From NCBI GenBank assembly GCA_034231615.1, contig CM067304.1, positions 20,266,089 to 20,330,088 on the forward strand: a stretch of DNA of 64,000 nt, given 5' to 3'. The number at the start of each line of letters is the position of its first letter. Within the stretch, counting starts at the first letter, position 1. This DNA comes from Meghimatium bilineatum. Its lineage: Eukaryota; Mollusca; Gastropoda; Stylommatophora; Philomycidae. Shown in pieces: positions 1 to 63,980 of this stretch. The position numbers and the translations under genes are program-made. The notes below the pieces were generated by a model. That model had not been told where the DNA came from and searched no databases. It saw only the letters and a program-made list of their open reading frames with translations.

Positions 1-708
1 AGATCACAAATCTGTCATGTATATTCAGCTCTCGCTCCTACAGATCACAAATCTGTCATGTATATTCAGCTCTCGCTCCTACAGATCACAAATCTGTCAT
101 GTATATTCAGCTCTCGCTCCTACAGATCACAAATCTGTCATGTATATTCAGCTCTCGCTCCTACAGATCACAAATCTGTCATGTATATTCAGCTCTCGCT
201 CCTACAGATCACAAATCTGTCATGTATATTCAGCTCTCGCTCCTACAGATCACAAATCTGTCATGTATATTCAGCTCTCGCTCCTACAGATCACAAATCT
301 GTCATGTATATTCAGCTCTCGCTCCTACAGATCACAAATCTGTCATGTATATTCAGCTCTCGCTCCTACAGATCACAAATCTGTCATGTATATTCAGCTC
401 TCGCTCCTACAGATCACAAATCTGTCATGTATATTCAGCTCTCGCTCCTACAGATCACAAATCTGTCATGTATATTCAGCTCTCGCTCCTACAGATCACA
501 AATCTGTCATGTATATTCAGCTCTCGCTCCTACAGATCACAAATCTGTCATGTATATTCAGCTCTCGCTCCTACAGATCACAAATCTGTCATGTATATTC
601 AGCTCTCGCTCCTACAGATCACAAATCTGTCATGTATATTCAGCTCTCGCTCCTACAGATAACAAATCTCTCATGTATATTCAGTTCTCGCCCCTACTGA
701 TCACAAAT
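1..708. repeat. 41-bp minisatellite, about 17 units
   Basis: Sixteen essentially identical 41-bp units (each holds CTCTCGCTCCTACAGATC) run from the window edge to about 656. A diverged last unit follows, so the array extends leftwards beyond the window. Each unit carries the inverted repeat ACAGAT-CACAA-ATCTGT. The open frames here are periodic artefacts, not genes. Confidence 0.97.
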
Positions 709-914
709 CGAGAAAATCTGCCACCAGAAAAGTTGCTATTTGAGGGTTTCATAGTCCATTTGATATTTTGAAGTGGATCAAAACAGTTACGGACTTGTAC
801 AGAGTTCGCTGATGGTAACCTGCAGTCATGAACTCATAACTTTACACTCTTGCTCACTGTGACATGGGGCTAGACTTTCACTTTCAGCGTCCCAGTGTTG
901 CAGCTCATCATAAA

Positions 915-2675: not shown

Positions 2676-3322
2676 ATAATTTTCCTATTAATCTTCCTAT
2701 TAATTTTCCTATTAATCTTCCTATTAATTTTCCTATTAATCTTCCTATTAATTTTCCTATTAATCTTCCTATTAATTTTCCTATTAATCTTCCTATTAAT
2801 TTTCCTATTAATCTTCCTATTAATTTTCCTATTAATCTTCCTATTAATTTTCCTATTAATTTTCCTATTAATTTTCCTATTAATCTTCCTATTAATTTTC
2901 CTATTAATCTTTCTATTAATTTTCCTATTAATCTTCCTATTAATTTTCCTATTAATCTTTCTATTAATTTTCCTATTAATTATCCTATTAATCTTCCTAT
3001 TAATTTTCCTATTAATCTTCCTATTAATCTTCCTATTAATCTTCCTATTAATCTTCCTATTAATCTTCCTATTAATTTTCCTATTAATCTTCCTATTAAT
3101 TTTCCTATTAATCTTCCTTTTAATTTTCCTATTAATCTTCCTATTAATTTTCCTATTAATCTTCCTATTAATTTTCCTATTAATCTTCCTATTAATTTTC
3201 CTATTAATCTTCCTATTAATTTTCCTATTAATCTTCCTATTAATTTTCCTATTAATCTTCCTATTAATTTTCCTATTAATCTTCCTATTAATTTTCCTAT
3301 TAATCTTCCTATTAATTCCCCC
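2676..3322. repeat. 12/24-bp minisatellite, about 54 x 12 bp
   Basis: Units of ATTAATTTTCCT and ATTAATCTTCCT alternate, giving a 24-bp dimer over most of the array. A block near 3015-3070 is pure CTTCCT type. The minus strand reads as a 233-codon NRKI repeat, an artefact of the 12-bp period. Confidence 0.97.
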
Positions 3323-4109
3323 ATTAATCATGTTTAATTGTGACTGTTGACTTCTTACCTGCTGTAGTACGTGATGCCATATTTGCTGAGCTCGTGACCC
3401 ACAGCATATATCAAATTTTAATCAGCCTGACGGGCTCGCAAAAATTACTTTGCGAGCCGAATTCGTCCGCGAACCGTATTTTGTCTATCCCTGCTCTAAA
3501 CGTTGACATCTTTCTGACCCTTCATTATCTCGTGTTATATCATGTTTTCAGCATTTTCTTATCCGAAGTTTGAACAATGTACCCAGCCCTAAGTTCACAG
3601 ACCCCAATTCTACTCATTTATCAAAAAGAGAGAAGAAAAAAACGTAAAATCGACATTTAAGCTGGTAACAAAGTCTGGAAGACATAAATATGCCAGCTGG
3701 ATTGATCTTGAATAAAATCAACTACATATTTCTAACTTAAGAACTAACATTCTCAAGATTTAAGTCGACTCTAACCGGCAAATTCTTCCTGGCAATCTCA
3801 GAAGTTTGTGCGTGCAGAGACGCCTTAAGCTCAGACAGTGAGTTTTCTTTTTCTTAATGGAAAAATTGTCAAAGAAATTCTGTTATCTCCTCTAGTTTAC
3901 GTCACCAAGTAAGAATATATTGGATGTCCCACTCGCCATTGGTCCACGATTTCTCTTCCTCAAAATTATAAGGAAGTGTCTGGGAACAGAGCCGAAATGG
4001 ACATCTTGTAGAAGAAAATTATTGAATCAATGTTTGGTTATAATAAATCATCTCTCACAGACATCAGAAAGAACACCTTGACATCAGATCACACTGACAC
4101 TACGCAAAC
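3323..4109. other. Unassigned 0.8-kb stretch
   Basis: No exon, RNA or repeat recognised. The 77-codon frame at 3340-3573 has no recognisable protein character. Confidence 0.5.
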
Positions 4110-8689: not shown

Positions 8690-9832
8690 GGGTTCTTGAT
8701 ACTACACAACAAATGATGACGCGTCTATACTGATACTACACAACAATAGATGACGCTTCTATACTGGTACTACACAACAAATGATGACGCGTCTATACTG
8801 ATACTACTCAACAATAGATGACGCGTCTATACTGGTACTACACAACAATAGATGCCGCTTCTATACTGATACTACACAAGAATAGATGACGCTTCTATAC
8901 TGATACTACACAACAAATGATGACGCGTCTATACTGCTACTACACAACAATAGATGACGCTTCTATACTGGTACTACACAACAAATGATGACGCGTCTAT
9001 ACTGATACTACACAACAATAGATGACGCTTCTATACTGGTACTACACAACAAATGATGACGCGTCTATACTGATACTACTCAACAATAGATGACGCGTCT
9101 ATACTGGTACTACACAACAATAGATGCCGCTTCTATACTGATACTACACAAGAATAGATGACGCTTCTATACTGATACTACTCAACAATAGATGACGCTT
9201 CTATACTGGTACTACACAACAATAGATGCCGCTTCTATACTTATACTACACAAGAATAGATGACGCTTCTATACTGGTACTACACAACAATAGATGCCGC
9301 TTCTATACTGATGCTACACAAGAATAGATGACGCTTCTATACTGGTACTACACAACAAATGATGACGCGTCTATACTGATACTACACAAGAATAGATGAC
9401 GCTTCTATACTGGTACTACACAACAAATGATGACGCGTTATACTGATACTACACAACAATAAATGACACTTCTATAATGGTACTACACAACAAATGATGA
9501 CGCGTCTATACTGATACTACACAACAATAAATGACACTTCTATAATGGTACTACACAACAAATGATGCGTCTATACTGATACTACACAACAAATGATGAC
9601 GCGTCTATACTGATACTACACAACAATTGATGACGCATCTATACTGATACTACTGAACAATAGATGACTCTTCTATACTGATAAAACTCAACAATAGATG
9701 ACGCTTCTATACTGGTACTGCACAACAATAGATGACGCATCTATACTGATACTACTCAACAATAGATGACGCTTCTATACTAGTACTACTCAGCAATTGA
9801 TGACGCGTCTATACTGTACTACACAATAATGC
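8690..9832. repeat. About 34-bp minisatellite with higher-order structure
   Basis: Roughly 34 units containing TACTACACAACAATAGATGA, in two main types (AAATGATGACGCGTC and AATAGATGACGCTTC) that often alternate. A block of about 150 bp beginning near 8761 recurs almost exactly near 9033. Confidence 0.95.
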
Positions 9833-13780: not shown

Positions 13781-14027
13781 TAAACAAACTCACATAATTT
13801 TCTAACAGCTTATGGATACACAAATAGTGTAAACTAATTCTGGAGGAACAAGATAGAATGTATTGTTCCTATCCTTTCGTGCTTATGGAAGATTGATAGT
13901 ACTTAAGGGAAACAGAACGTTGATCAGCCATACAAAAAAAAACGCATAGACTATCCGACTATGTGTATGTACTAAAAAATACAAATAACAGTGTGCACGA
14001 CAATTTCAACGTTTGACGTTAATTCAG

Positions 14028-14095
14028 TGTTTCCTAACCTTTTTTTTTTTTTTTTTAACCCATGACCCACATAAGTCTTTCTAAAATGCTGATGT
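14028..14095. mobile_element. Possible hAT-type MITE end
   Basis: CAGTGTTTCCTAACCTTTTT and AACCCATGACCCAC resemble the CAGTG-TTCTCAACCT / GACCC terminal region of hAT non-autonomous transposons. Only one end is visible. Confidence 0.35.
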
Positions 14096-14128
14096 CTCAC
14101 TTCTGTAATATATACATATTTATTTATA

Positions 14129-14270
14129 TTCTTCTTCTTCAATGTTCGTTCTCAAAATCCTTCTGGTTCTCTTTTGTAGTTAGATTTCCAGCATGATGTA
14201 GTTCATAAAATTGAATTGTGTTGTATCCCAGCTTTACTCGTGTCAATGGCCTAACACATACGTCTTCAGT
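14129..14270 (-). mobile_element. GAA-tailed SINE-like element
   Basis: Minus strand: tail as TTCTTCTTCTTC, then AATGTTCGTTCTCAAAATCC, GTTAGATTTCCAGCATGATG and a decayed head. Confidence 0.8.
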
Positions 14271-14319
14271 AGATTTATATGTTTCAAATGTAGAATTATT
14301 CCCTAAATGAAGCTTAATC

Positions 14320-14330
14320 ATAACTTCTTC
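14320..14330. repeat. Target-site duplication, left copy
   Basis: ATAACTTCTTC immediately precedes the LINE 5' end and recurs at 18386-18396 after its tail. Confidence 0.9.
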
Positions 14331-14405
14331 CCCCATCGAGGCCAGAACCTTGAAGTGGTGATGGGGCTTAGTTCAGCCATCAGAGGCTGGAAACTAAGAC
14401 TGGTC
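14331..14405 (+). ncRNA. Putative HDV-like self-cleaving ribozyme at LINE 5' end
   Basis: By eye the 75 nt fit the nested double pseudoknot. P1 is CCCCATC (14331-14337) with GATGGGG (14360-14366). P2 is GGCCAG (14340-14345) with CTGGTC (14400-14405). P3 is ACC/GGT closing a 7-nt loop TTGAAGT (14350-14356). P4 lies within 14371-14394 (AGCC/GGCT core). J4/2 includes CTAAGA with a candidate catalytic C at 14394. P1 begins exactly at the element boundary, where such ribozymes cut the 5' end of LINE RNA. A competing longer P4 (CTTAGTT/AACTAAG) is possible. No activity data. Confidence 0.65.
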
Positions 14406-14499
14406 GGGCACTCCCACTCGAGCAGGACCATAGTCCGGCCCAAGTAAGCAGAGTGCTGAAGACGGAGGCAACCAGCCAAAAGGCGCACAGATAATCAGG

Positions 14500-17400
14500 T
14501 TGCCACGCATAAAACACAATGGAAACATGTCTGCATCTAATAAACGTTATGGTGCCTGCCCTGTGGCGGACGTTCAGGCAGGGACGGTGCCGGGCCCTAT
14601 ACCTCGAAAGGGCCCAACCTCAGTTACTGGAAGTCCTTCTCAATTGCCCCGAGGAGCCAGGAGGCAAGGGAATAGAGCTACTGGCCAAACAAACAAACGA
14701 CCAATAAAAATAATGCACTGGAATGCTGAGGGTGTTAACAGTAAAAGAGATGGATACAGCAAAAAATTGGAACTTGAAAATGTCCTCAGTGAAGAACAAG
14801 TAAATATATGCTGTATCCAAGAAACACACCTCAGCAGCGACATAGCCTTCAAAATCAGAGGCTACCAGTGCTACCGATCTGACCGAAAAGACAGGCGAAA
14901 GGGTGGAATTCTGACACTAGTTAAAAACAATATCAGCGCATGTCAGCTGGAAGTATACATGGACGGGGCAGAATACCAGATGCTCCACCTAAAAACAGAC
15001 AGTGCAGAATTCCATCTCCTGAACTACTACTGCCCAAATGATAAACCATTGGCACTAGACACAATTCCAGACAAAGAAAGGCTTATGGTGTGTGGTGACT
15101 TCAACAGCCACTCTCAGAGCTGGGGCTACGATCATATCGACAAGAGAGGTGAGGAACTTGAGAGCTGGCAGGATGAAAATAATCTCATTCTTATTAACCA
15201 GCCAGCAGACTCACCAACCTTCTACTCGAGAGCATGGCACACCACCTCTACACCAGACCTGGCATTCTACTCACCAGGCCTGGAATGGAACATCACACGT
15301 GTCGTTGGAAAGCAGCTTGGGGGTAGTGACCACAGACCAGTATTTCTGGAAATTCACAATGAATATACCAAGGACAGCAGCACGCTCACTAGGTGGAACT
15401 ATAAGAGGGCAGACTGGAAAATGTACCAGCATTTAACCAGTGTTCTAGCTAAGGACATGAACTTGGACAAAGACATCAATAGAGCAGTGAGTGAATTTAA
15501 TAGATGTATACTACATGCTGCTAGTAAAACCATACCCAGGGGGGCACGCAAAAACTACAAACCCTACTGGAATGATGAACTGGAAAAGCTGCAAAATGAG
15601 ATGGAAACATCTAGAAAGCAGGCCGAGAACAGACCTAGCCAAGAACATCACAACAAATATCAGAAAACAAAGGCTAAATTTCAAAGAGCCAAGTTACAAG
15701 CCAGACGGAGCAGCTGGAAAGAAAAAACAGAGTCGCTGAACCTAGAAAGAGATACTAGGAAATTATGGAAACTTGTAAAACAACTAAATGATGAAGGTAC
15801 AGGGAGAAATACCAAGATCACACTTTATAAAGATAGAAACATTTTAACAGGTAAACATGCAGCTGATTACTTTGCAGATTCCTTTGCAGAAGACAATAAC
15901 GTCAAAGTCAGCCCAGACAAACAACAGGAGGTTCGAGAGAACCAGCAAAACATTGGACAAGGTGAACCTATACCTGAAGTCATGGAGGCACCAATCACAA
16001 TGAGAGAACTGGAGCATGCAATATCCAAATTGAAAATGAAAAAGTCCCCTGGAGCTGATGGAGTGTCCAATGAAATGATTAGAAACCTGGGAAGTGCAGC
16101 AAGAGCAAAGCTACTGCAGATCTTTAACACAAGCTGGTCCACAGGTAATGTACCACAGGCGTGGAGAGAAGCAATAATGATACCACTCCTCAAATCAGGA
16201 AAAGATGGCAACACAGTCTCCAACTACAGGCCCATCAGCCTCACAAGCTGTCTATGTAAAACAATGGAACGCATTATCAATCTTAGGATGCAGTGGTACC
16301 TTGAAAGTGAAAACCTTCTGGTATCACAGCAAGCAGGTTTCAGACAGTGCTACTCTACTGAAGATCAGGCAACCTACCTCTCCCAAGAGATTGAGGATGC
16401 CTTCCAAGAAAAGAAACTGGTACTAGCAGCATGGATAGACCTCAGGAAAGCATTTGATAAGGTCTGGAAAGAAGGGCTCCTAAAGAAATTGCGAAATTGC
16501 AGGGTTAGCTCAAGAATGTACAAATGGGTAAAAGCATACCTGCATAATAGAAGAGCCAGGGTACAATTAGATGGTCGCAAGAGCAAGAAAGTTCTACTGC
16601 GTCATGGAGTCCCCCAGGGAGGAGTCCTGTCACCCACACTTTTCTTGGTTTACATCAATGACCTAGTTGCTGAACTACCTCACGGGATCAAAGTGGCAAT
16701 GTATGCTGACGACCTGGTGATCTGGTGCACGGAAGAACATGCAACAGTGGCCACTAAACAAATACAAAGAGCTATCGATGCCCTAACCTTATGGGCTAAT
16801 AGATGGTGCGTCAGCATTAACACAGATAAGTGCAGCACTACACTCTTTACCCTCTCACCAAAACAAAAAGCTGGTCATATCAAGATAGATGGAGAGCTCT
16901 TGAAAGAAGACAAACAACCCACATACCTCGGAGTTACTTTTGATGATAAGCTGACATGGAAGCAGCACATAAACAAAGCAACAACAAAAGCCAGGAGGAA
17001 GCTAGCTATCCTGAGAAAACTAAGTGGAACCACATGGGGAGCCAGTGGAAATATACTCAGTAAAGTTTACCAGCAAGGCATAAGACCACACCTGGAATAC
17101 GGTTCAGCTGCGTGGTGTCCTGCATCAAACACCACATTACAAGATCTAGATAAAGTGCAAAACCAGGCACTTAGAATAATGTTGGGAGCAATGAAATCAA
17201 CACCCATAGCAGAGATGCAGAAAATGGGAAGAATGCAAACACTTGGCGAACGCAGAGACACAAAAGTACTAATTCAAGCAGAAAAGTTTCAGTGTATGCC
17301 AAGTCATCCAATGAAGGAAAGATTCCAAAATCTAGCAATGGGACGACTGAAAAGGAGCAGCTTTATCCATCAAGCTAAACGACTCCGTAGACAACTTACA

Positions 17401-18350
17401 GACCTACCTGAAGTTGGCAGCCCCTTAAGGTCTGTACCAGAGCAAACCCCGTGGAGTGAAAGCCATGGAATGCCAATATACATTCAGACCCATGTGAAAG
17501 GAATACTAAGCGAGGACGAACAGAACAGTGTGCAGCGAATGACAATCACCCTCAGTTTCCTGGATGAGGAATATCCACAAGATATATGGGTCAGAGTGTA
17601 CACAGATGGGTCAGCACAGAATGCTGTGAGGAATGGAGGTGCAGGTGTATATATAGAATATCCACACAAGCCTAGAGATACAATCAGAACACCGACAGGA
17701 AAATTCTGCAATAATTATGATGCAGAAATCCAGGCAATTAGTGTGGCAGCTAAAAAACTGCTGAACTCCAACTCTGACCTACAGCCTATGGTATTCCTGA
17801 CAGATGCAAGGTCAGTGCTTCAAGCTCTCCTATCTGGAAAACTAACAGACTTAAAAAAACTACTTAGCGAATTGTCTTACCAGTATAGGGTAACCATGCA
17901 GTGGATACCCTCTCACTGTGGAATACCAGGAAATGAAAAAGCAGACCAACTGGCTAAGGAAGGTGCTGCCGAAGACCAACCAGATATACCAATCACCTAC
18001 CATCAGAAAAACAGATGATAAAGTCAATAAGAAAGCCACAAACACCAACACAAGATGACTATCACAATATGAACAGATCAGAACAAGTTATAATTCTACG
18101 TCTCAGAACAGGACACAACCGACTCCGCAGTCACATGTATACAAAGTTCAAAATTGGCAACACGGCCATGTGTACATGTGGACAGGCAGCACAGAGTGCC
18201 AAACATATACTTCAAGAGTGTTCTGAGCATGAAACGCTGAGGCAGACATATTGGCCAGAGGAAACAACACTGGAATCAAAACTCTATGGGACACTGTATG
18301 AACTACAAAAGACAGTGAGTTTTATTAAGGAGACAGAATTACAGATATAG
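14500..18350 (+). pseudogene. LINE polyprotein: endonuclease-RT-RNase H, single frameshift
   Basis: A frame of 1172 codons (14500-18018) continues, after a one-base loss in an A run near 18007-18011, in another frame (18015-18350). The minus-strand copy at 42.5-43.4 kb reads through this point. Domains by residue: N-terminal basic region 1-65; APE-type endonuclease about 68-290 (HWNAEG, IQETHL, GDFNSHSQSW, SDHRP near 275); RT about 500-790 (SPGADG, AWIDLRKAFDKVW, GVPQGGVLSP, YADD near 735); RNase H about 1028-1165 (YTDGSA, AEIQ, TDAR, HCGIPGNEKADQLAKEGA). A C-terminal CTCG...H...C motif lies past the frameshift. The start was chosen because the second full 5' copy has the same ATG. RT and endonuclease cores look intact; only the C-terminal motif is lost from the main frame. 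Confidence 0.95.
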
Positions 18351-18385
18351 ACATGTTTCAAGTGAACGAAAGAAGAAGAAGAAGA

Positions 18386-18396
18386 ATAACTTCTTC
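18386..18396. repeat. Target-site duplication, right copy
   Basis: ATAACTTCTTC directly follows the (GAA)n tail, matching 14320-14330. Confidence 0.9.
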
Positions 18397-18730: not shown

Positions 18731-19640
18731 GTTTTTATCATTATTAAGTGCCGTCTCCGCAACGAAGGTTTGCTGCAACAGACCTCCAATACCTTCTATA
18801 TCTTGTATTGGTCGTGCGTTCCTCTAGACTGTAACCTGTCCATCTCGTGTTATTGCTCTCCCACTCGTACCTCTGTCTACATCTTGACCAACTTATATAC
18901 ATTCATGTCCAAAATATTGTATTTGTTTGATCTTTATTTCCTTTAATAGTTCTTTCTTATTTTCTTATTAAGTGATATCAGAACCTCTTTGTTTTTATTT
19001 TATTTTTCCATGATGTTCTCCGCATTCTTCTATATATCCACATCTCAAAGGCGTCAATTCCGTCTTCTAATTGTTTGTTTATTGTGCATGCGTCTAATTC
19101 ATATATTAATATAGAATAGATGTAGCATTTTATAATTCTCATTTTGAGCTTTTTTGTAATTTGTTTAGATGTTAATATTTTCCTCATGTCATTGAAGGTA
19201 CTTTTAGTTATTCCTATTCTCCTTTTTAACTTCTGTTTCACATCTGCTATCATTTGTGACTTTGTGTTCAAGATATTGATAATGTTTTACTTGTTGTAGT
19301 TTCTCTCCATTTATGTTTATGTTTACCTCCTGTTCTTCTGTGTCTTTGCTGATTATCATGGATTTTTATTTTTGGATATTTATATCTATTCCATATTGAT
19401 TACTTGATTTATTGACTTGATCTATTAGTCTTTGTAGTTCATGTTCACTTTCTGCCAAAAGAACAGTGTCATCTGCATATCTAATGTTGTTTATTATTTT
19501 CCCATTGATCTTGAGTCCTGGTATTTCTTCTATATTTTTTAAAGATATTCTCTGTGTATATATTAAATAGGCGTGGTGATAAAATGCATCCTTGTCTTAC
19601 CCCTCTTTTATTTATATATATGGTTAGTTGTTGTTTTCAC
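18731..19640 (-). mobile_element. RTE-like LINE, 5'-truncated
   Basis: On the minus strand RT motifs appear (RYADDTVLLAE near 19450-19490), then RRIGITKSTFNDMRKI, the ACTINKQLEDGIDAFEMW region, and a 3' end GCGGAGACGGCACTTAATAA. Same family as 49677-50340, broken by frameshifts and stops. Confidence 0.85.
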
Positions 19641-20110: not shown

Positions 20111-20487
20111 ATATAATCACTCGGATGTGTTATCCATCTATGCGTAGGGAAGCTCCTTGTGTTTTATAGAAGTACTATTGTTATACAGTTTTGCAGCAGT
20201 ATCACTTATTATCGATTATAGTAGAATGAAAAAAACAATTAGTTCTTGAACATCAATCATTTCAGCATTCAATCGTTACCCCCACACTGTCTTAATCTCT
20301 CCGGTCATCCCCGTCGCGTCATGCATGACTTCATCGCTCTTTACTAATCGTATTTCTGTTCTTTGATTGATTCCCCAAAGTTTTATCGTCCCCTGTCACT
20401 CCCTAAGCCCTCAGCACGCACCTCAAGTGCCCAATCTCTCCTTGGGAGAGATATCTCTCACTTTTAGATACCTTAGACTAATGTGGA
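20111..20487. other. Unassigned
   Basis: No recognised feature. Confidence 0.5.
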
Positions 20488-21290
20488 ACCTTAGAGTGTA
20501 GTCTGTTAGAAAACTTAGAGTGTAGTCCGTTAGAAACCTTAGAGTGTAGTCTGTTAGAAACCTTAGAGTATAGTCTGTTAGAAACCTTTGAGTGTAGTCT
20601 GTTAGAAACCTTAGAGTGTAGTCTGTTAGAAACCTTAGAGTGTAGTCTGTTAGAAACCTTAGAGTGTAGTCTGTTAGAATCCTTAGAGTGTAGTCTGTTA
20701 GAAACCTTAGAGTGTAGTCTGTCAGAAAACTGAGAGTGTAGTCTGTTAGAAACCTTAGAGTGTAATATGTTAGAAAACTTAGAGTGTAGTCTGTTAGAAA
20801 CCTTAGAGTGTAGTCTGTTAGAAACCTTAGAGTGTAGTCTGTTAGAAACCTTAGAGTGTAGTCTGTTAGAAACCTTAGAGTGTAGTCTGTTAGAAACCTT
20901 AGAGTGTAGTCTGTTAGAAACCTTAGAGTGTAGTCTGTTAGAAACCTTAGAGTGTAGTCTGTTAGAAACCTTAGAGTGTAGTCTGTTAGAAACCTTAGCG
21001 TGTAGTCTGTTAGAAACCTTAGAGTGTAGTCTGTTAGAAACCTAGAGTGTAGTCTGTTAGAAACCTTAGAGTGTAGTCTGTTAGAAACCTTAGAGTGTAG
21101 TCTGTTAGAAAACTTAGAGTGTAGTCTGTTAGAAACCTTAGAGTGTATTCTGTTAGAAACCTTAGAGTGTAGTCTGTTAGAAACCTTAGAGTGTAGTCTG
21201 TTAGAAAACTTAGAGTGTAGTCTGTTAGAAAACTTAGAGTGTAGTCTGTTAGAAAACTTAGAGTGTAGTCTGTTAGAAACCTTAGTTAAA
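20488..21290. repeat. 24-bp minisatellite, about 33 units
   Basis: Highly homogeneous units of TTAGAGTGTAGTCTGTTAGA plus AACC. Scattered variants have AAAC, ATCC, TATT and a one-base deletion near 21043. The 92-codon frame inside is an artefact of the 24-bp period. Confidence 0.98.
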
Positions 21291-26623: not shown

Positions 26624-27548
26624 TGGTTATTCTAGTGAAAACTTGTCAAATTAGTCATTCTTTTATAAGTTGCGCAGTTATTCTAGTGAAAACTTGTCAA
26701 ATTAGTCATTCTTTTATAAGTTGCGCAGTTATTCTAGTGAAAACTTGTCAAATTAGTCATTCTTTTATACGTTGCGCAGTTATTCTAGTGAAAACTTGTC
26801 AAATTAGTCATTCTTTTATACGTTGCGCAGTTATTCTAGTGAAAACTTGTCAAATTAGTCATTATTTTATACGTTGCGCAGTTATTCTAGTGAAAACTTG
26901 TCAAATTAGTCATTATTTTATACGTTGCGCAGTTATTCTAGTGAAAACTTGTCAAATTGGTCATTATTTTATAAGTTGCGCAGTTATTCTAGTGAAAACT
27001 TGTCAAATTGGTCATTATTTTATAAGTTGCGCAGTTATTCTAGTGAAAACTTGTCAAATTAGTCATTCTTTTATAAGTTGCGCAGTTATTCTAGTGAAAA
27101 CTTGTCAAATTGGTCATTATTTTATACTTTGCGCAGTTATTCTAGTGAAAACTTGTCAAATTGGTCATTATTTTATACTTTGCGCAGTTATTCTAGTGAA
27201 AACTTGTCAAATTGGTCATTATTTTATAAGTTGCGCAGTTATTCTAGTGAAAACTTGTCAAATTGGTCATTATTTTATAAGTTGCGCAGTTATTCTAGTG
27301 AAAACTTGTCAAATTAGTCATTATTTTATACTTTGCGCAGTTATTCTAGTGAAAACTTGTCAAATTGGTCATTATTTTATACTTTGCGCAGTTATTCTAG
27401 TGAAAACTTGTCAAATTGGTCATTATTTTATACTTTGCGCAGTTATTCTAGTGAAAACTTGTCAAATTGGTCATTATTTTATACTTTGCGCAGTTATTCT
27501 AGTGAAAACTTGTCAAATTAGTCATTCTTTTATAAGTTACACAGTTCT
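26624..27548. repeat. 51-bp minisatellite, 18 units
   Basis: Very regular units containing TTATTCTAGTGAAAACTTGT and CAAATTAGTCATTCTTTTAT. Variants (AGT/GGT, TCT/TAT, AAG/ACG/ACT) form sub-blocks. The period is 3 x 17, which leaves a 325-codon frame with no protein-like composition. Confidence 0.98.
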
Positions 27549-27559
27549 TCATACATAGG

Positions 27560-42309: not shown

Positions 42310-42350
42310 GATGATTAAATCACTTCTATAAGGGTGGTTGGTGTAATACT
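42310..42350. repeat. 38-bp minisatellite, left part
   Basis: One unit (CACTTCTATAAGGGTGGTTG GTGTAATACT) left of the LINE insertion. 42339-42350 (TGGTGTAATACT) is the left target-site duplication. Confidence 0.9.
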
Positions 42351-43399
42351 TCTTCTTCTTCTTCTTCTTTCGTTCACTTGAAACATGTCTATATCTGTAA
42401 TTCTGTCTCCTTAATAAAACTCAGTCTTTTGTAGTTCATACAGTGTCCCATAGAGTTTTGATTCCAGTGTTGTTTCCTCTGGCCAATATGTCTGCCTCAG
42501 CGTTTCATGCTCAGAACACTCTTGAAGTATATGTTTGGCACTCTGTGCTGCCTATCCACATGTACACATGGCTGTGTTGCCAATCTTGAACTTTGTGTAC
42601 ATGTGACTGCGGAGTCGGTTGTGTCCTGTTCTGAGACGTAGAATTATAACTTGTTCTGGTCTGTTCATAATATGATAGTCATCTTGTGTTGGTGTTTGTG
42701 GCTTTCTTATTGACTTTATCATCTGTTTTTTATGATGGTAGGTGATTGGTATATCTGGTTGGTCTTCGGCAGCACCTTCCTTAGCCAGTTGGTCTGCTTT
42801 TTCATTTCCTGGTATTCCACAGTGAGAGGGTATCCACTGCATGGTTACCCTATACTGGTAAGACAATTCGCTAAGTAGTTTTTTCAAGTCTGTTAGTTTT
42901 TCAGACTGGAGAGCTTGAAGCACTGACCTTGCATCTGTCAGGAATACCACAGGCTGTAGGTCAGAGTTGGAGTTCAGCAGTTTTTTAGCTGCCACACTAA
43001 TTGCCTGGATTTCTGCATCATAATTATTGCAGAATTTTCCTGTCGGCGTTCTGATTGTATCTCTAGGCTTGTGTGGATATTCTATATATACACCTGCACC
43101 TCCATTCCTCACAGCATTCTGTGCTGATCCATCTGTGTATACTCTGACCCATATATCTTGTGGATATACCTCATCCAGGAAACTGAGGGTGACTGTCCTT
43201 TGCTGCACACTGTTCTGTTCGTCCTCGCTTAGTATTCCTTTCACATGGGTCTGAATGTATATTGGTATTCCATGCCTTTCACTCCACGGGGTTTGTTCTG
43301 GTACAGGCCTTAAGGGGCTGTCAACTTCAGGTAGGTCTGTAAGTTGTCTGCAGAGTCGTTTAGCTTGATGGATAAAGATGCTTCTTTTCAGTCGTCCCA
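42351..43399 (-). mobile_element. LINE copy 2, 5'-truncated
   Basis: Minus-strand 3' end of the GAA-tailed LINE. Tail as (TTC)n at 42351-42369, then the 3' UTR, Cys/His motif, RNase H (YTDGSA, HCGIPGNEKADQ) and a 5' truncation at the MGRLKRS codons. The A run broken in copy 1 is in frame here, but CAG to TAG makes a stop near 42552. TGGTGTAATACT flanks it at 42339 and 43400. Confidence 0.96.
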
Positions 43400-43660
43400 T
43401 GGTGTAATACTGATTACATTACTTCTATAAGGGTGGTTGGTAAAATACTGATTACATTACTTCTATAGGGTGGTTGGTGTAATACTAATTACATTACTTC
43501 TACAAGGGTGGTTGTTGTAATACTGATTACATCACTTCTATAACGGCGGTTGTTGTAATACTGGTTACATTACTTCTATAATGGTGGTTGGTGTAATACT
43601 GATTACATTACTTCTATAAGGGTGGTTGGTGTAGTGTTGATTGCATTACTTCTGGAATGT
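43400..43660. repeat. 38-bp minisatellite, right part, about 6 units
   Basis: TACTGATTACATTACTTCTA plus TAAGGGTGGTTGGTGTAA. The LINE landed inside this array. Confidence 0.95.
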
Positions 43661-46814: not shown

Positions 46815-49247
46815 CAGCAATTTTAAAATTAGAGGATACCATGCTACATATCAGACGGAGAGGCGAAATCGTGCAATTCTGAAACTTGTTAAAAACAATA
46901 GCAATGTATGTCAGCTGAAAGTGCATATGAAGGGGACAGAATATCAGATGCCTCACCTAACGACAGACAGTACAGAATTCTATCTCCTGTACTACTACTG
47001 CCCAAATGATAGACCATTGGCACTAGACACAATCCCAGATAAAGAGAGACTTATGGTGTGTGGTGACTTCAACAGCCACTCTCAGAGCTGGGACTATGAT
47101 CACATGGAGAAGAGAGGTGAGGAACTTGAGAGCTGGCAGGATGAAAATAATCTCATACTTATTAACCAGCCAGCAGACCCACCAACCTCCTACTCTAGAG
47201 CGTGGCACACCGCCACTACAAGTAACCCGGCATTCAACTCACCAGGCCTGGAATGAAGCATCACACGGGTCGTTGAAAAGCAGCTTGGAGGTAGCTTGAA
47301 AGTAGCTTATCATTTAACCAGTGTTCTAGCTAAGGACATGAACGTGGGCAAAGACATCAATAGAGCAGTGAGTGAATTTAATAGATGTATACTATATGCT
47401 GCTAGTAAAACCATACCCAGGGGGGCACGCAAAACTACAAACCCTACTGGAATGATGAACTGGAGAAGCTGCAAATTGTGATGGAAATATCTAGACAGCA
47501 GGCTGAGAACACACCTAGCCAAAAATATCACAACATGTATCAGCAAAGTCTAAATTTTAAAGAGCCAAGTTACAAGCCAGACGAAGCCGCTGGAAAGAAA
47601 ACAACAGAATCGCTAAACCTTGAATGAGACACTAGGAAATTATGGAAACTGGTAAAACAATTTAAGGATGAAAGTACAGGGAGAAATACAAGTATCAAAC
47701 TTTATAAAGAAAGAAACATTTTAACAGGTAAACATGCAACTGATTACTTTGCAGATTCATTTGCAGATGACAACATCAGTTAGCCCAGAGAAACAACAGA
47801 AGGTTCGAGATAACCAGCAAAACATTGTACAAGGCGAACCTATACCTGAAGACATGGATGCGCCAATCACAATGAAAGAACTGGAGAATGCAATATCCAA
47901 ATTGAAAATGAAAAAGTCCGCAAGAGCTGATGGACTGCCCAATGAAATTATTAAAAACCTAGGAACTGCAGTATGAGTAAACCTACTGCAAATCTTCAAC
48001 ACAAGCTGGATCACAGGTAATGTTCCGTAGTCATGGAGGAAATCAATAATGATACCACTCCTCAAATCAGGAAAACATGGCAACACAGTCTCCAATTACA
48101 GGACCATCAGCCTCACAAGCTGTCTATGCAAAACAATGGAACGCATTATCAATCTTAGAATGCAGTGGTACCTTGAAAGTGAAAACCTTCTGGTATCACA
48201 GCAAGCAGGCTTCAGACAGTGCTACTTTTCTGAAGATCAGGCAACCTACCTATCCCAAGAGATTGAGGACGCCTTCCAAGATAAGAAACTGGTACTAGCA
48301 GCATGGATAGACCTCAGGAAATCATTTCACAAGGTTTGGAAAGAAGGACTCTTAAAGAAATTACGAAATTACAGGGTTAACTCAAGAATGTACAACTGGG
48401 TAAAAGCATACCTGCATAATAGAAGAGCCAGGGTACAATTAGATGGTCGCAAGAGCAAGAAAGTCCTACTGCGTCATGGAGTCCCCCAGGGAGGAGTCCT
48501 GTCACCCATCCTTTTCTTGGTTTACATCAATGACCTAGTTGCTGAACTACCACACGGGATCAAAGTGGCAATGTATGCTGACGACCTGGTGATCTGGTGC
48601 ACGGAAGAACATGCGACAGTGGCCACTAAACAAATACAAAGAGCTATCGATGCCCTAACCTTATGGGCAAATAGATGGTGCGTCAGCATTAACACAGATA
48701 AGTGCAGCACTACACTCTTTACCCTCTCAGCAAAACAAAAAGCCGGTGTTATGAAGATAAATGGAGAGCTTTTGAAAAAAGCCAAACAACACACATACCT
48801 CGGAGTTACTTTTGATGATAAGCTGACATGGAAGCAGCACATAAACAAAGCAACAACAAAAGCCAGGAGGAAGTTAGCTATCCTGAGAAAACTAAGGGGA
48901 ACCACATAGTGAGATAGTGGGAATATACTCGTTAATGCTTACCAGCAAGGCATAAGACCACACCGGGAATATGGTTCAGTTGCATGGTGTCCTGCATCAA
49001 GCACCAGATTATAGGATCTAGATAAAGTGCAAACCAAGCGCCTAGGATAATGCAGGGAGCAATGAAATAAACACCCATAGTAGAGATGCAGAAAATGGGG
49101 AGAACACAAGCACTTGGCGAACGAAGAGACACAAAGATACTAATACAAGCAGAACAGTTTCAGTGTAGGCCATGTCATCCAAAGAAGGAAAGATTCCAAA
49201 ATCTAGCAATGGGGCGACTGAAACAAGCAGCTTTATCCATCAAGCGA
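46815..49247 (+). mobile_element. LINE copy 3, decayed, both ends missing
   Basis: Same family as copy 1, from the IAFKIRGYQ region of the endonuclease to the FIHQAKRL codons before RNase H. About 100 bp are missing near 47290. Stops and frameshifts occur near 47257, 47480, 47625, 47975 and 48907. The RT core frame at 48049-48909 is still open with YADD, but its catalytic-strand motif reads LRKSFHKV, having lost the Asp. Confidence 0.95.
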
Positions 49248-49334
49248 AACGACTAGCTTCCATTCACTGTCTTCCTTATCGATACAAGATGCCACATATG
49301 AGAAATATTCGTTCAGTGCAAGAGAACAAACTTG

Positions 49335-49659: not shown

Positions 49660-50340
49660 ACACTTCATCATCATCATTAAGTGCCGTCTCCGCAACGAAG
49701 GTTGGCTGTAACGTATCTCCAACATCTCCTGTCTCTTGTCTTGGTGGTGCACTCTGCTAGACTGTAACCTGTCCAACGTGTAATGTTACTCTCCCACTTG
49801 TATCTCTGCCTACCTCTTGCTCGCTTCCCTTTGACTTTACCCTCAAGTAAGGTCTTCAATAGGGTGTCATGTCTTTTAATGTGTCCAAAGTATTTTATTT
49901 GCCTGATCTTTATTTCTCTTAGTAGTTCTTTCTTCATATTAAGTGTCTTTAGCACCTCTTTATTTGTTTTCTTCTCTTTCCATGATGTTCTCCCTATTCT
50001 TCTATATACCCACATCTCAAAGGCATCAATTTTGTCTTCTAATTGTTTATTTAGTGTCCATGTTTCTGAGCCATACATTAATATGGAATAGATATAGCAT
50101 TTTATAATTCTCATTATTAACTTGTTTGTAATTTGTTTAGATATTAATAATTTCCTCATGCCATTGAAGGTACTTTTAGCCATTCCTATTCTCCTTTTAA
50201 CTTCTGTTTCACATCTGCCATCATTTGTGACTATGTGTCCATGATATTGATACTGTTTTACCTGTTGTAGTTTCTCTCCCTGTATCTTTATGTTTATCTC
50301 CTGTTCTTCTGTGTTATACAACACACTTCATACACACTCG
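49660..50340 (-). mobile_element. RTE-like LINE 3' part, (ATG)n tail
   Basis: A 215-codon minus-strand frame with YHGHIVTNDGRCETEVKRRI, YGSETWTLNKQLEDKIDAF, RRIGRTSW, FGHIKRHDTLLKTLLEG, GKRARGRQRYKW and WRYVTANLRCGDGT, typical of the region after RT in RTE-like elements. The tail (TTAATGATGATGATG on the minus strand) lies at 49665-49680. The best preserved of its family here. Confidence 0.92.
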
Positions 50341-50915
50341 TATTTCTCGCACGCTGAAACGAACTTTCACAAAGAAATGATGCAACAAAAATTGTTCCAT
50401 ATAAATCTAATCCACAAAAATATCCACAGGTTGCAAGATCTGCAGATACCATCTCCTCCATCAAGGTGGAACTTAGTAAATATATCTCTCAAGCTTTATC
50501 TGAACATTGCTGCTTATAGACGAAGTTTCCATGGAATCGACCGTGTCTTAAGCTGGTGGAGACAATCCTACTTTATTCCAATACCTTTCTATTTTTCTCC
50601 TCATAGATCAATATCCTGACATTTGTCCAAGCAGATTTTGTAAGCATGCTCGAATATTTAATTTTTTTTTAAATTTTCAAATTATATTTTTTTCTGGACA
50701 CAAAATCTGGATAATTTACTGCGGAAGAATTAGGAATAACAATTTTTTCAAATCAGAAGTGGACAGAATACGGCACAAGATCCAAATGTGCCTCGCCTAG
50801 CCACTTTTACTGGCACTCTAATCTGATTTAAATATACTATAGCGACTCATCCCCCGACTCAGATATCACTAACTCTTAATCCAAGAAACTAAAACACACA
50901 GAAATGTTGACTCCG
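50341..50915. other. Unassigned
   Basis: The 109-codon frame at 50290-50619 overlaps the LINE 5' edge and is not recognised. Confidence 0.45.
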
Positions 50916-50916
50916 T

Positions 50917-51788
50917 TTCATATGAGAAAAACCGAGTCTTCGTTGTCTGTTATAATGTCTGTAGTTGCATCAGTTTCATATAAGAAAAACTGAGTCTTCG
51001 TTGTCTGTTATAATGTCTGTTGTTGCATCAGTTTCATATAAGAAAAACTGAGTCTTCGTTGTCTGTTATAATGTCTGTAGTTGCATCAGTTTCATATAAG
51101 AAAAACTGAGTCTTCGTTGTCTGTTATAATGTCTGTTGTTGCATCAGTTTCATATAAGAAAAACTGAGTCTACGTTGTCTGTTATAATGTCTGTTGTTGC
51201 ATCAGTTTCATATAAGAAAAACTGAGTCTTCGTTGTCTGTTATAATGTCTGTTGTTGCATCAGTTTCATATAAGAAAAACTGAGTCTACGTTGTCTGTTA
51301 TAATGTCTGTTGTTGCATCAGTTTCATATAAGAAAAACTGAGTCTACGTTGTCTGTTATAATGTCTGTTGTTGCATCAGTTTCATATAAGAAAAACTGAG
51401 TCTTCGTTGTCTGTTATAATGTCTGTTGTTGCATCAGTTTCATATAAGAAAAACTGAGTCTACGTTGTCTGTTATAATGTCTGTTGTTGCATCAGTTTCA
51501 TATAAGAAAAACTGAGTCTTCGTTGTCTGTTATAATGTCTGTTGTTGCATCAGTTTCATATAAGAAAAACTTAGTCTTCGTTGTCTGTTATAATGTCTGT
51601 AGTTGCATCAGTTTTATATAAGAAAAACTGAGTCTACGTTGTCTGTTATAATATTTCTGTTGTTGCATCAGTTTCATATAAGAAAAACTGAGTCTTCGTT
51701 GTCTGTTATAATGTCTGTTGTTGCATCAGTTTCATATAAGAAAAACTGAGTCTACGTTGTCTGTTATAATGTCTGTTGTTGCATCAAT
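50917..51788. repeat. 58-bp minisatellite, 15 units
   Basis: Units contain TTGTCTGTTATAATGTCTGT and GCATCAGTTTCATATAAG. The CTTCG/CTACG and GTAGTTG/GTTGTTG variants alternate in places. Confidence 0.98.
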
Positions 51789-61574: not shown

Positions 61575-62060
61575 TCCTGAACAGTCATCACAACCTTTCG
61601 AAACTTCTGTCCATCTTGAGCCAGCTTTCTACATCTATTATGATGTCTTTGATGTCTTTTGTCCATCTTCTTAATGGTTTGTCTCTTGTTCGTCTTCCTG
61701 ACATTATCTCCTCCATTGTGGTCTTCTCTAGGCTGTCATGGCGTTTTATACGGCCAAAATATTCCAGTTGTCTTAAAAGAACTATCTGTTTAGCGAGTTT
61801 TCTTTTAGATTCATTTCTCTCAGGATGGCTATATTGGTGATCTATATTGTCCATGGTTTTCTGAGGATTTTTCTGTAACATTTCATCTCAATGCTGTTAT
61901 TTTATTTTTCCTTTTGTTGGTGAGTGTCCAGGATTTACTCCCATATATTGTCACTGGGAATATGCAAGCTTTTACGAATGTTAGTTTTGTTGTTCTGCAG
62001 GAACTCAGCCATATGTTGTTGTTTTTTTTTTTTTTTTTGGTTTGTATCAGCTTCTTTGAC
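61575..62060 (-). mobile_element. RTE-like LINE 3' fragment
   Basis: Minus-strand 97-codon frame with LRQLEYFGRIKRHDSLEKT, SGRRTRDKPLRRWTKDIKD and a decayed C-terminal end. Confidence 0.85.
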
Positions 62061-62126
62061 TGATGTCCAACCTACTTCTGACTTCTTCATAGCAATTATA
62101 GTTACTGTTGATAAGAGAACCAATGA

Positions 62127-62201
62127 CCCCATCGAGGCCAGAACCTTGAAGTGGTGATGGGGCTTAGTTCAGCCATCAGAGGCTGGAAACTAAGACTGGT
62201 C
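62127..62201 (+). ncRNA. Putative HDV-like ribozyme, second copy
   Basis: Same 75 nt as at 14331-14405, again beginning at the first base of the element. Confidence 0.65.
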
Positions 62202-62295
62202 GGGCACTCCCACTCGAGCAGGACCATAGTCCGGCCCAGGTAAGCAGAGTGCTGAAGACGGAGGCAACCAGCCAAAAGGCGCACAGATAATCAGG

Positions 62296-63980
62296 TTGCC
62301 ACGCATAAAACACAATGGAAACATGTCTGCATCTAATAAACGTTATGGTGCCTGCCCTGTGGCGGACATTCAGGCAGGGACGGTGCCGGGCCCTATACCT
62401 CGAAAGGGCCCAACCTCAGTTACTGGAAGTCCTTCTCAATTGCCCCGAGGAGCCAGGAGGCAAGGGAATAGAGCTACTGGCCAAACAAACAAACGACCAA
62501 TAAAAATAATGCAATGGAATGCTGAGGGTGTCAACAGTAAAAGAGATGGATACAGCAAAAAATTGGAACTTGAAAATGTCCTCAGTGAAGAACAAGTAAA
62601 TATATGCTGTATCCAAGAAACACACCTCAGCAGCGACATAGCCTTCAAAATCAGAGGCTACCAGTGCTACCGATCTGACCGAAAAGACAGGCGAAAGGGT
62701 GGAATTCTGACACTAGTTAAAAACAATATCAGCGCATGTCAGCTGGAAGTATACATGGACGGGGCAGAATACCAGATGCTCCACCTAAAAACAGACAGTG
62801 CAGAATTCCATCTCCTGAACTACTACTGCCCAAATGATAAACCATTGGCACTAGACACAATTCCAGACAAAGAAAGGCTTATGGTGTGTGGTGACTTCAA
62901 CAGCCACTCTCAGAGCTGGGGCTACGATCATATCGACAAGAGAGGTGAGGAACTTGAGAGCTGGCAGGATGAAAATAATCTCATTCTTATTAACCAGCCA
63001 GCAGACTCACCAACCTTCTACTCGAGAGCATGGCACACCACCTCTACACCAGACCTGGCATTCTACTCACCAGGCCTGGAATGGAACATCACACGTGTCG
63101 TTGGAAAGCAGCTTGGGGGTAGTGACCACAGACCAGTATTTCTGGAAATTCACAATGAATATACCAAGGACAGCAGCACGCTCACTAGGTGAAACTATAA
63201 GAGGGCAGACTGGAAAATGTACCAGCATTTAACCAGTGTTCTAGCTAAGGACATGAACTTGGACAAAGACATCAATAGAGCAGTGAGTGAATTTAATAGA
63301 TGTATACTACATGCTGCTAGTAAAACCATACCCAGGGGGGCACGCAAAAACTACAAACCCTACTGGAATGATGAACTGGAAAAGCTGCAAAATGAGATGG
63401 AAACATCTAGAAAGCAGGCTGAGAACAGACCTAGCCAAGAACATCACAACAAATATCAGCAAACAAAGGCTAAATTTCAAAGAGCCAAGTTACAAGCCAG
63501 ACGGAGCAGCTGGAAAGAAAAAACAGAGTCGCTGAACCTAGAAAGAGATACTAGGAAATTATGGAAACTTGTAAAACAACTAAATGATGAAGGTACAGGG
63601 AGAAATACCAGGATCACACTTTATAAAGATAGAAACATTTTAACAGGTAAACATGCAGCTGATTACTTTGCAGATTCCTTTGCAGAAGACAATAACGTCA
63701 AAGTCAGCCCAGACAAACAACAGGAGGTTCGAGAGAACCAGCAAAACATTGGACAAGGTGAACCTATACCTGAAGTCATGGAGGCACCAATCACAATGAG
63801 AGAACTGGAGCATGCAATATCCAAATTGAAAATGAAAAAGTCTCCTGGAGCTGATGGAGTGTCCAATGAAATGATTAGAAACCTGGGAAGTGCAGCAAGA
63901 GCAAAGCTACTGCAGATCTTTAACACAAGCTGGTCCACAGGTCTGTACCACAGGCGTGGAGAGAAGCAATAATGATACCA
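62296..63980 (+). pseudogene. LINE polyprotein, 5' part, stop and frameshift
   Basis: N-terminal region and endonuclease (GDFNSHSQSW, SDHRP) are open to the TGA at 63189. The frame then continues from 63192 through the linker and the start of RT (SPGADGVSNEMI) until the frameshift near 63943. Differs from copy 1 at a few residues (V/I, H/Q, K/Q, K/R). Confidence 0.93.

What the first reader, a model, noticed from the sequence alone, without database searches (positions are those of the whole stretch)
14331..14405. HDV-like ribozyme fold at the exact 5' end of a LINE
All HDV-fold helices can be drawn: P1 of 7 bp, P2 of 6 bp (one G-U), P3 of 3 bp with a 7-nt loop, P4, and a CTAAGA J4/2 with a candidate catalytic C. 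P1 starts at the first element base after the target-site duplication, in both full-length copies (also 62127). R2, RTE, L1Tc and some other LINEs are known to use such ribozymes to free their 5' end. I know of no report for this family, and none was searched.
Basis: partly seen in the sequence, partly recalled or inferred. Interest (0 to 1): 0.85.

Follow-up and report, generated by a model that had tools for sequence, protein, structure and literature searches.

The report
HDV-like ribozyme fold starting a LINE
The first 75 bases of an abundant retrotransposon in a large eukaryotic genome can fold like the self-cutting RNA of hepatitis delta virus and keep that fold in a related family, so the element probably cuts itself free at its own first base, as similar elements of trypanosomes are known to do.

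Summary
A 75-nt HDV-type double pseudoknot starts at the first base after the target-site duplication of a 4.1-kb EN-RT-RNase H LINE (14331) and is identical at 62127. The own genome has 1,013 exact core copies, and 967 places with the intact start. A second family (B; 32-63% identical in protein, by stretch) has a homologous 5' end: its first 75 nt are 89% identical to the window copy, against 57-73% in the next nineteen 75-nt bins. Of the 8 differences, four form two compensated pairs (P2 G-C to A-U, P3 A-U to U-A) and four are unpaired; no helix is broken. Nine internally deleted copies keep the module, like trypanosomatid NARTc/RIME.

Against: no HDV-type Rfam hit; few independent covariation events; a conserved 7-bp complementarity between J1.1/4 and J4/2 would hide the catalytic C and is preferred by nested energy models; cleavage is untested. 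Closest known: the Pr77 ribozyme/promoter of trypanosomatid L1Tc/ingi LINEs. I judge this a new member of that known kind, probably an Ingi-like LINE (clade not tested). Fold real: about 0.9; active self-cleavage at the junction: about 0.75.

The parts
14320..14330 (+). 5' target-site duplication ATAACTTCTTC
   Evidence: Exact 11-nt repeat at 18386-18396
14331..14405 (+). HDV-like double-pseudoknot module, predicted cleavage between 14330 and 14331
   Evidence: Descriptor fit; identical at 62127; conserved with compensatory changes in family B
14331..14337 (+). P1 5' strand CCCCATC (pairs with 14360-14366 GATGGGG)
   Evidence: 7 Watson-Crick pairs; identical in the E and B majority sequences; no compensatory change seen
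14340..14345 (+). P2 5' strand GGCCAG (pairs with 14400-14405 CTGGTC)
   Evidence: 6 pairs, one G-U; pair 15-70 is A-U in 5 of 43 rows (4 of family B and old copy L033) and G-U in 3 (L059, L084, L085)
14347..14359 (+). P3 ACC/GGT with 7-nt L3 TTGAAGT (U at 14350, G at 14355)
   Evidence: Pair 17-29 is U-A in 7 of 7 family B rows; U20 in 40 of 43 rows and G25 in 42 of 43
14374..14389 (+). P4 CAGCC/GGCTG
   Evidence: 92.6% of cells paired, one-sided changes or breaks only
14394..14399 (+). J4/2 CTAAGA, candidate catalytic C at 14394
   Evidence: C in 42 of 43 rows
14367..14398 (+). Competing helix 14367-14373 CTTAGTT with 14392-14398 AACTAAG, extending P4 and pairing the candidate catalytic C
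   Evidence: Used by the nested minimum-free-energy fold, -29.2 kcal/mol; 93.4% of cells paired, no change on both sides
14530..18018 (+). ORF: endonuclease, reverse transcriptase, RNase H
   Evidence: Pfam Exo_endo_phos_2, Exo_endo_phos, RVT_1, RNase_H
18386..18396 (+). 3' target-site duplication after the (GAA)n tail; element copy 1 is 14331-18385
62127..62201 (+). Second, identical copy of the module, start of element copy 2 (cut by the window end)

Best explanation
The 75 nt are an HDV-type self-cleaving ribozyme at the exact 5' end of an autonomous, probably Ingi-like LINE. Shown here: the fold can form, it lies at +1, it is conserved with compensatory changes in a second LINE family, and it is retained in short internally deleted copies. 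Inferred: RNA made by read-through from upstream host sequence (or by initiation just upstream) folds into the double pseudoknot, the C at position 64 and a metal ion cut before base 1, and an RNA with a precise element 5' end is released for target-primed reverse transcription. Afterwards the extended P4 hairpin, which pairs J1.1/4 with J4/2, probably replaces the active core and leaves a stable 5' UTR, comparable to the structural switch proposed for L1Tc.
For: Fold at the pre-specified first base, rare by chance. The 30 copies fetched (L001-L030, 30 of the 40 scored) start at the same base; flanks differ except that L029 and L030 share one (these were picked as full matches from base 1). 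1,013 places carry bases 8-29 exactly and 967 carry bases 1-29. Family B: 67 of 75 identical in the module against 43-55 of 75 in the 19 following bins; 8 differences, of which 4 form two compensated pairs and none breaks a helix. With 8 random substitutions all 21 pairs survive in 15,572 of 2,000,000 trials, and with two or more double changes in 444. 92.4% of cells paired against at most 47.9% in slid controls; 13 double-changed cells against a shuffled mean of 4.0. L3 U and G and the J4/2 C nearly invariant. Of 17 short-matching loci examined, 9 join the first 159-240 nt to a 23-226 nt stretch of the element's 3' end, 8 of these 9 with a duplication ending at the module's first base (search anchored there). 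Precedent: PMC4035085.
Against: No cleavage test. No HDV-type Rfam match. The nested energy model prefers the extended P4 hairpin that hides the catalytic C. P1.1 reduces to one G-C plus a U-U in my reading. +1 is C, not the G I recall for most HDV-like ribozymes, although PMC4035085 names C1 in P1 of an L1Tc-type ribozyme. P1 shows no compensatory change; double changes between families amount to about two events, plus one apparently independent double change in copy L033; the number of pairs with a double change (3) is no higher than in shuffles (3.0). A search for a third state at pair 17-29 (G or C on both sides) found 66 places, only one of them fitting without mismatch, and that one (G with G) does not pair. 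Families A and C, which also encode related proteins, show no such fold at their 5' ends (0 of 7 loci scanned).
Confidence: 0.75

Rival explanations
1. The conserved 75 nt are mainly an internal RNA polymerase II promoter (initiator plus downstream element near +24 to +28), which fixes the 5' end by transcription start; the fold is incidental or secondary.
For: 5 of 8 family B loci have CGTG at about +24 to +27, close to the CGTG at +25 to +28 of the L1Tc Pr77 promoter, where promoter and ribozyme activity are reported for the same sequence. A precise start would also give uniform 5' ends.
Against: The window family has AGTG at that place. Promoter function does not predict compensated changes in P2 and P3, or a conservation peak in the first 75-nt bin, whose edge is the last base of P2 (bin size was my choice). 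It is compatible with, not exclusive of, the ribozyme.
Confidence: 0.12
2. The RNA is structured and conserved, but its functional state is the nested form (P1 hairpin plus 12-bp extended P4), for example in translation or protein binding, and it does not self-cleave.
For: Extended helix kept in 93.4% of cells; minimum-free-energy fold uses it, z -2.74.
Against: The extended helix shows no change on both sides and loses one pair in family B (T43 to C). P2 and P3, which only the pseudoknot needs, do covary. The nested alternative to P3 in E (11-14 with 26-29) loses a pair in B and is not in B's nested fold.
Confidence: 0.1
3. Chance resemblance: the helices can be drawn but mean nothing.
For: 26 other hits of the loosened descriptor in the window; no HDV-type Rfam hit.
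Against: Position at +1, conservation peak, compensated changes and random-substitution test.
Confidence: 0.03

Closest known systems
L1TcRz / Pr77 hallmark of trypanosomatid L1Tc/ingi LINEs and NARTc, RIME, SIDER short elements (PMC4035085: abstract and sections 3, 5, 6, 9, 11 part 1; PMC4748587: passages and section 6 part 1; PMC8190864: passages)
   Same: HDV-like fold in the first 77-78 nt of an EN-RT-RNase H LINE; cleavage just upstream of +1; P1 begins with C; CC-rich run then (C/A)GTG near +16 to +28; shared by internally deleted non-autonomous copies; a conformational switch is proposed there.
   Different: Module is 75 nt; L3, J4/2 and P4 could not be compared in full because only 5' parts of Pr77 are printed in the text I saw; the window family has AGTG, not CGTG; homology and clade not tested; activity untested.
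R2 ribozymes of animals (PMC3774820: abstract, sections 12, 16, 17)
   Same: HDV-like ribozyme at a LINE 5' end, P1 6-7 bp, P2 at least 5 bp, conserved L3 G pairing with a U, catalytic C.
   Different: R2 is 28S-specific and in most species cuts upstream in 28S; J1/4 is 0-2 nt there, longer here; P1 G-C orientation differs as described for L1Tc-type.
HDV ribozyme family, Rfam RF00094
   Same: Nested double-pseudoknot topology (PMC4908430, passages) and similar core strand lengths (numbering recalled).
   Different: No covariance-model match; P1.1 weaker, +1 C.

Membership tests
HDV-like self-cleaving ribozymes | Nested double pseudoknot P1, P2, P3, (P4) in HDV order | tested here: met
   Sequence can form it and keeps it across families; definition in PMC4908430
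HDV-like self-cleaving ribozymes | P1.1 of one or two base pairs | tested here: inconclusive
   One possible G22-C37 pair (G in 41 of 43, C in 38 of 43 rows) plus a U-U
HDV-like self-cleaving ribozymes | Catalytic C at the start of J4/2 | tested here: met
   C64 in 42 of 43 rows; position as in PMC10879173. It can also pair with G41
HDV-like self-cleaving ribozymes | L3 U and G forming a reverse wobble | tested here: met
   U20 40 of 43, G25 42 of 43; feature from PMC3774820, spacing recalled. The pair itself is not observable here
HDV-like self-cleaving ribozymes | Match to Rfam HDV-type covariance models | tested here: not met
   A database criterion rather than a property of the family; noted as negative
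HDV-like self-cleaving ribozymes | Self-cleavage before P1, lost when the catalytic C is changed | not testable with these tools
   needs bench work
L1Tc/ingi-type LINE with Pr77-like 5' module | EN-RT-RNase H ORF behind a ~77-nt 5' ribozyme fold | tested here: met
   (fold, not activity)
L1Tc/ingi-type LINE with Pr77-like 5' module | Reverse-transcriptase phylogeny inside the Ingi clade | not tested
   no reference Ingi proteins were at hand; Ingi is frequent in some gastropods according to passages of PMC11203168, and the host here is not identified
L1Tc/ingi-type LINE with Pr77-like 5' module | CGTG downstream promoter element at +25 to +28 | tested here: inconclusive
   CGTG about one base earlier in 5 of 8 family B loci, AGTG in the window family
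L1Tc/ingi-type LINE with Pr77-like 5' module | Short internally deleted copies sharing the module | tested here: met
   9 of 17 loci examined

The most novel reading that the evidence does not exclude
The ribozyme-plus-promoter module of trypanosomatid Pr77 and this module are one inherited device, older than the split of their hosts, and work as a one-shot switch: the pseudoknot cuts the element free at +1, then the conserved J1.1/4-J4/2 helix forms, buries the catalytic C and locks the cleaved RNA in a non-cutting 5' UTR.
Probability: 0.25. Interest if true: 0.72.

Novelty: new member of a known kind. Interest (0 to 1): 0.5.

Why it matters
If active, this genome carries about a thousand or more copies of a self-cutting RNA at LINE 5' ends, each able to cut a host transcript that reads into it. 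It would extend the L1Tc/ingi-type ribozyme arrangement beyond trypanosomatids, including short parasitic derivatives, and offers two diverged families (E and B) with natural compensatory changes for testing function and inheritance. The built-in competing helix makes the question of how such ribozymes are shut off after one cut directly testable.

Tried and rejected
Rfam: no match in the window at gathering scores, none in 14300-14560 at E up to 10; five related loci gave four weak matches to unrelated families, none HDV-type; RF00094 over the own genome: none among 86 scored of 4,838 candidates, with sub-threshold matches in 4 of 14 control genomes. Relatives of the RT (267 aa) in viral contigs and genome contigs, and a module DNA pattern in viral contigs: none. 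Families A and C have other 5' ends (seen for 7 A and 4 C loci, of which L074 and L089 give shorter 5' matches); no HDV fold in the 7 loci scanned. RNAalifold found P3 and a different weak helix, not the full fold, as it cannot draw pseudoknots. Copies with base 7 changed and the rest of the core intact: 9, of which 7 are T, which keeps a U-G pair but is also what CpG decay gives, so I drew nothing from it. A third compensated state at pair 17-29 was sought and not found. Clade placement by phylogeny was not tried. I could not compare the 3' half of Pr77, which I did not find in the main texts I searched. Literature for a report of this module: (open-licence PMC only; listings and abstract starts seen; one search returned no paper at all); none found, and two papers I asked for by id are not held.

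Full report
Observation. Reading 13900-15300 and 61800-63000 and scripting the fold confirm each helix at the stated place. The element at 14331-18385 is bounded by an 11-nt target-site duplication, and P1 begins at its first base. The second copy at 62127 has the same 75 nt; its 3' end is beyond the window. The element has one long ORF with endonuclease, reverse transcriptase and RNase H. I call its family E.

Chance. A loosened descriptor is met at base 1 by 15 of 200,000 Markov sequences and at 26 other starts among about 128,000 in the window. This is suggestive only, since I wrote the descriptor after seeing the case.

Copies. The own genome (1.61 Gb, 32 contigs, unnamed) holds 1,013 exact copies of bases 8-29, and 967 places carry bases 1-29 exactly. 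The 30 copies fetched first (L001-L030, of 40 scored, all 100% identical over 370 nt) share the exact junction; their upstream flanks differ, except that L029 and L030 share one. They were selected as full matches. Thirteen copies found by a pattern that begins at base 8 and asks for changes in P2 also begin at the same base by eye.

Independent family. A search with an endonuclease codon pattern and fetching of 20 loci gave three other families. Against the element's protein, stretches of family B (L081-L088) are 32-63% identical (L086 41-57%), of family A 29-55%, of family C 38-43% with one separate stretch at 27%. B starts with a homologous 75 nt, seen in six loci and in L085 and L087; L084 has a changed first base and L082 carries a small insertion. 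In a global alignment of the window copy with L086 over 1,500 nt, the first 75-nt bin has 67 identities and the other 19 bins 43-55. The 8 differences are positions 15, 16, 17, 24, 29, 43, 50 and 70: 15-70 is G-C to A-U in P2, 17-29 is A-U to U-A in P3, and the other four are outside the 21 pairs. G-U at 15-70 occurs in L059, L084 and L085, and an old E-type copy, L033, carries A-U there as well. Eight random substitutions keep all 21 pairs in 0.78% of trials, and in 0.022% with at least two double changes.

Pair counts. Of 52 sequences (51 loci rows plus the window) 45 were distinct. For alignment A1 I dropped nine rows (duplicates L039, L044, L054, L060, L064, L070, L072; indel rows L069, L082), leaving 43, seven of them family B. 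The structure pairs 92.4% of 903 cells, against 23.4-47.9% for slid partners; 13 cells change on both sides against a shuffled mean of 4.0, 0 of 500 reaching it; but the number of pairs with double changes (3) and of further pair types (18) is no higher than in shuffles. P1 and P4 show one-sided changes or breaks only. Seven of the 13 cells are the shared family B state at 17-29, so independent events are few. Many individual old copies break P1 or P2; I take them for decayed copies. A search for a further compensated state at 17-29 found none.

The awkward part. J1.1/4 (CTTAGTT) and J4/2 with the bases before it (AACTAAG) are fully complementary over 7 bp, 6 in the family B majority. The nested minimum-free-energy fold of the window copy uses this helix, and so does that of L086. 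It is 93.4% paired but without any double change. I read it as a competing or post-cleavage state, which is inference. [quoted passage not shown]

Short elements. Many fetched copies match the element only in its first part. I examined 17 of them: in 9 the first 159-240 nt, always with the whole module, are followed by a 23-226 nt stretch from the element's 3' end, directly in 8 and after 27 unmatched nt in L050. In 8 of these 9 (not L066) a duplication of 10-16 nt with one mismatch flanks the copy; the search was anchored at the module's first base. L053 and L068 share nearly the same deletion, as do L038 and L049. This resembles the arrangement of NARTc/RIME.

Comparison with the known. From passages and section 6 (part 1) of PMC4748587, the L1Tc 5' primer begins CCCTGG..., CCACC lies at 16-20 and CGTG at 25-28. 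[quoted passage not shown] The window module resembles this type in position, length, +1 C and the bases around P3/L3. Whether it is homologous or convergent I cannot decide; PMC3774820 argues for convergence of active-site sequences. Ingi elements are frequent in some gastropods (PMC11203168 passages), but I identified neither the host nor the clade.

Verdict. A conserved HDV-type fold at the exact 5' end of an abundant LINE, most likely an active ribozyme; a new member of a known kind.

Noticed in passing
L038, L048, L049, L050, L053, L059, L066, L068, L070: Short internally deleted derivatives of the element (5' module joined to the 3' end), 8 of 9 with target-site duplications; two deletions are each seen, nearly alike, at two loci.
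   Followed up: partly
L075-L080 (starts about 787-855) and L091-L093: Two further EN-RT families with a different shared 5' end (CCTG..., GGGG-loop-CCCC hairpin, CCACAGGTGG); no HDV fold found in the 7 loci scanned, structure not explained.
   Followed up: partly
window 46822-49254 (+) and 42350-43400 (-): Diverged fragments of the same LINE family without the 5' module.
   Followed up: no
window 18737-19200 and 49670-50172: Sequence 3' of element copy 1 is repeated at 49670-50172 (about 82-84% identical), perhaps another LINE on the minus strand.
   Followed up: no
window 1-709, 2677-3329, 8697-9830, 20487-21285, 26626-27550, 50915-51786: Many long tandem arrays (periods 24-58, up to about 33 copies) in one 64-kb window.
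   Followed up: no
L048, L062, L063, L071: Some old copies have a changed L3 or P3 (for example CACCGTGTAGTGG), possibly a subfamily with a different L3.
   Followed up: no
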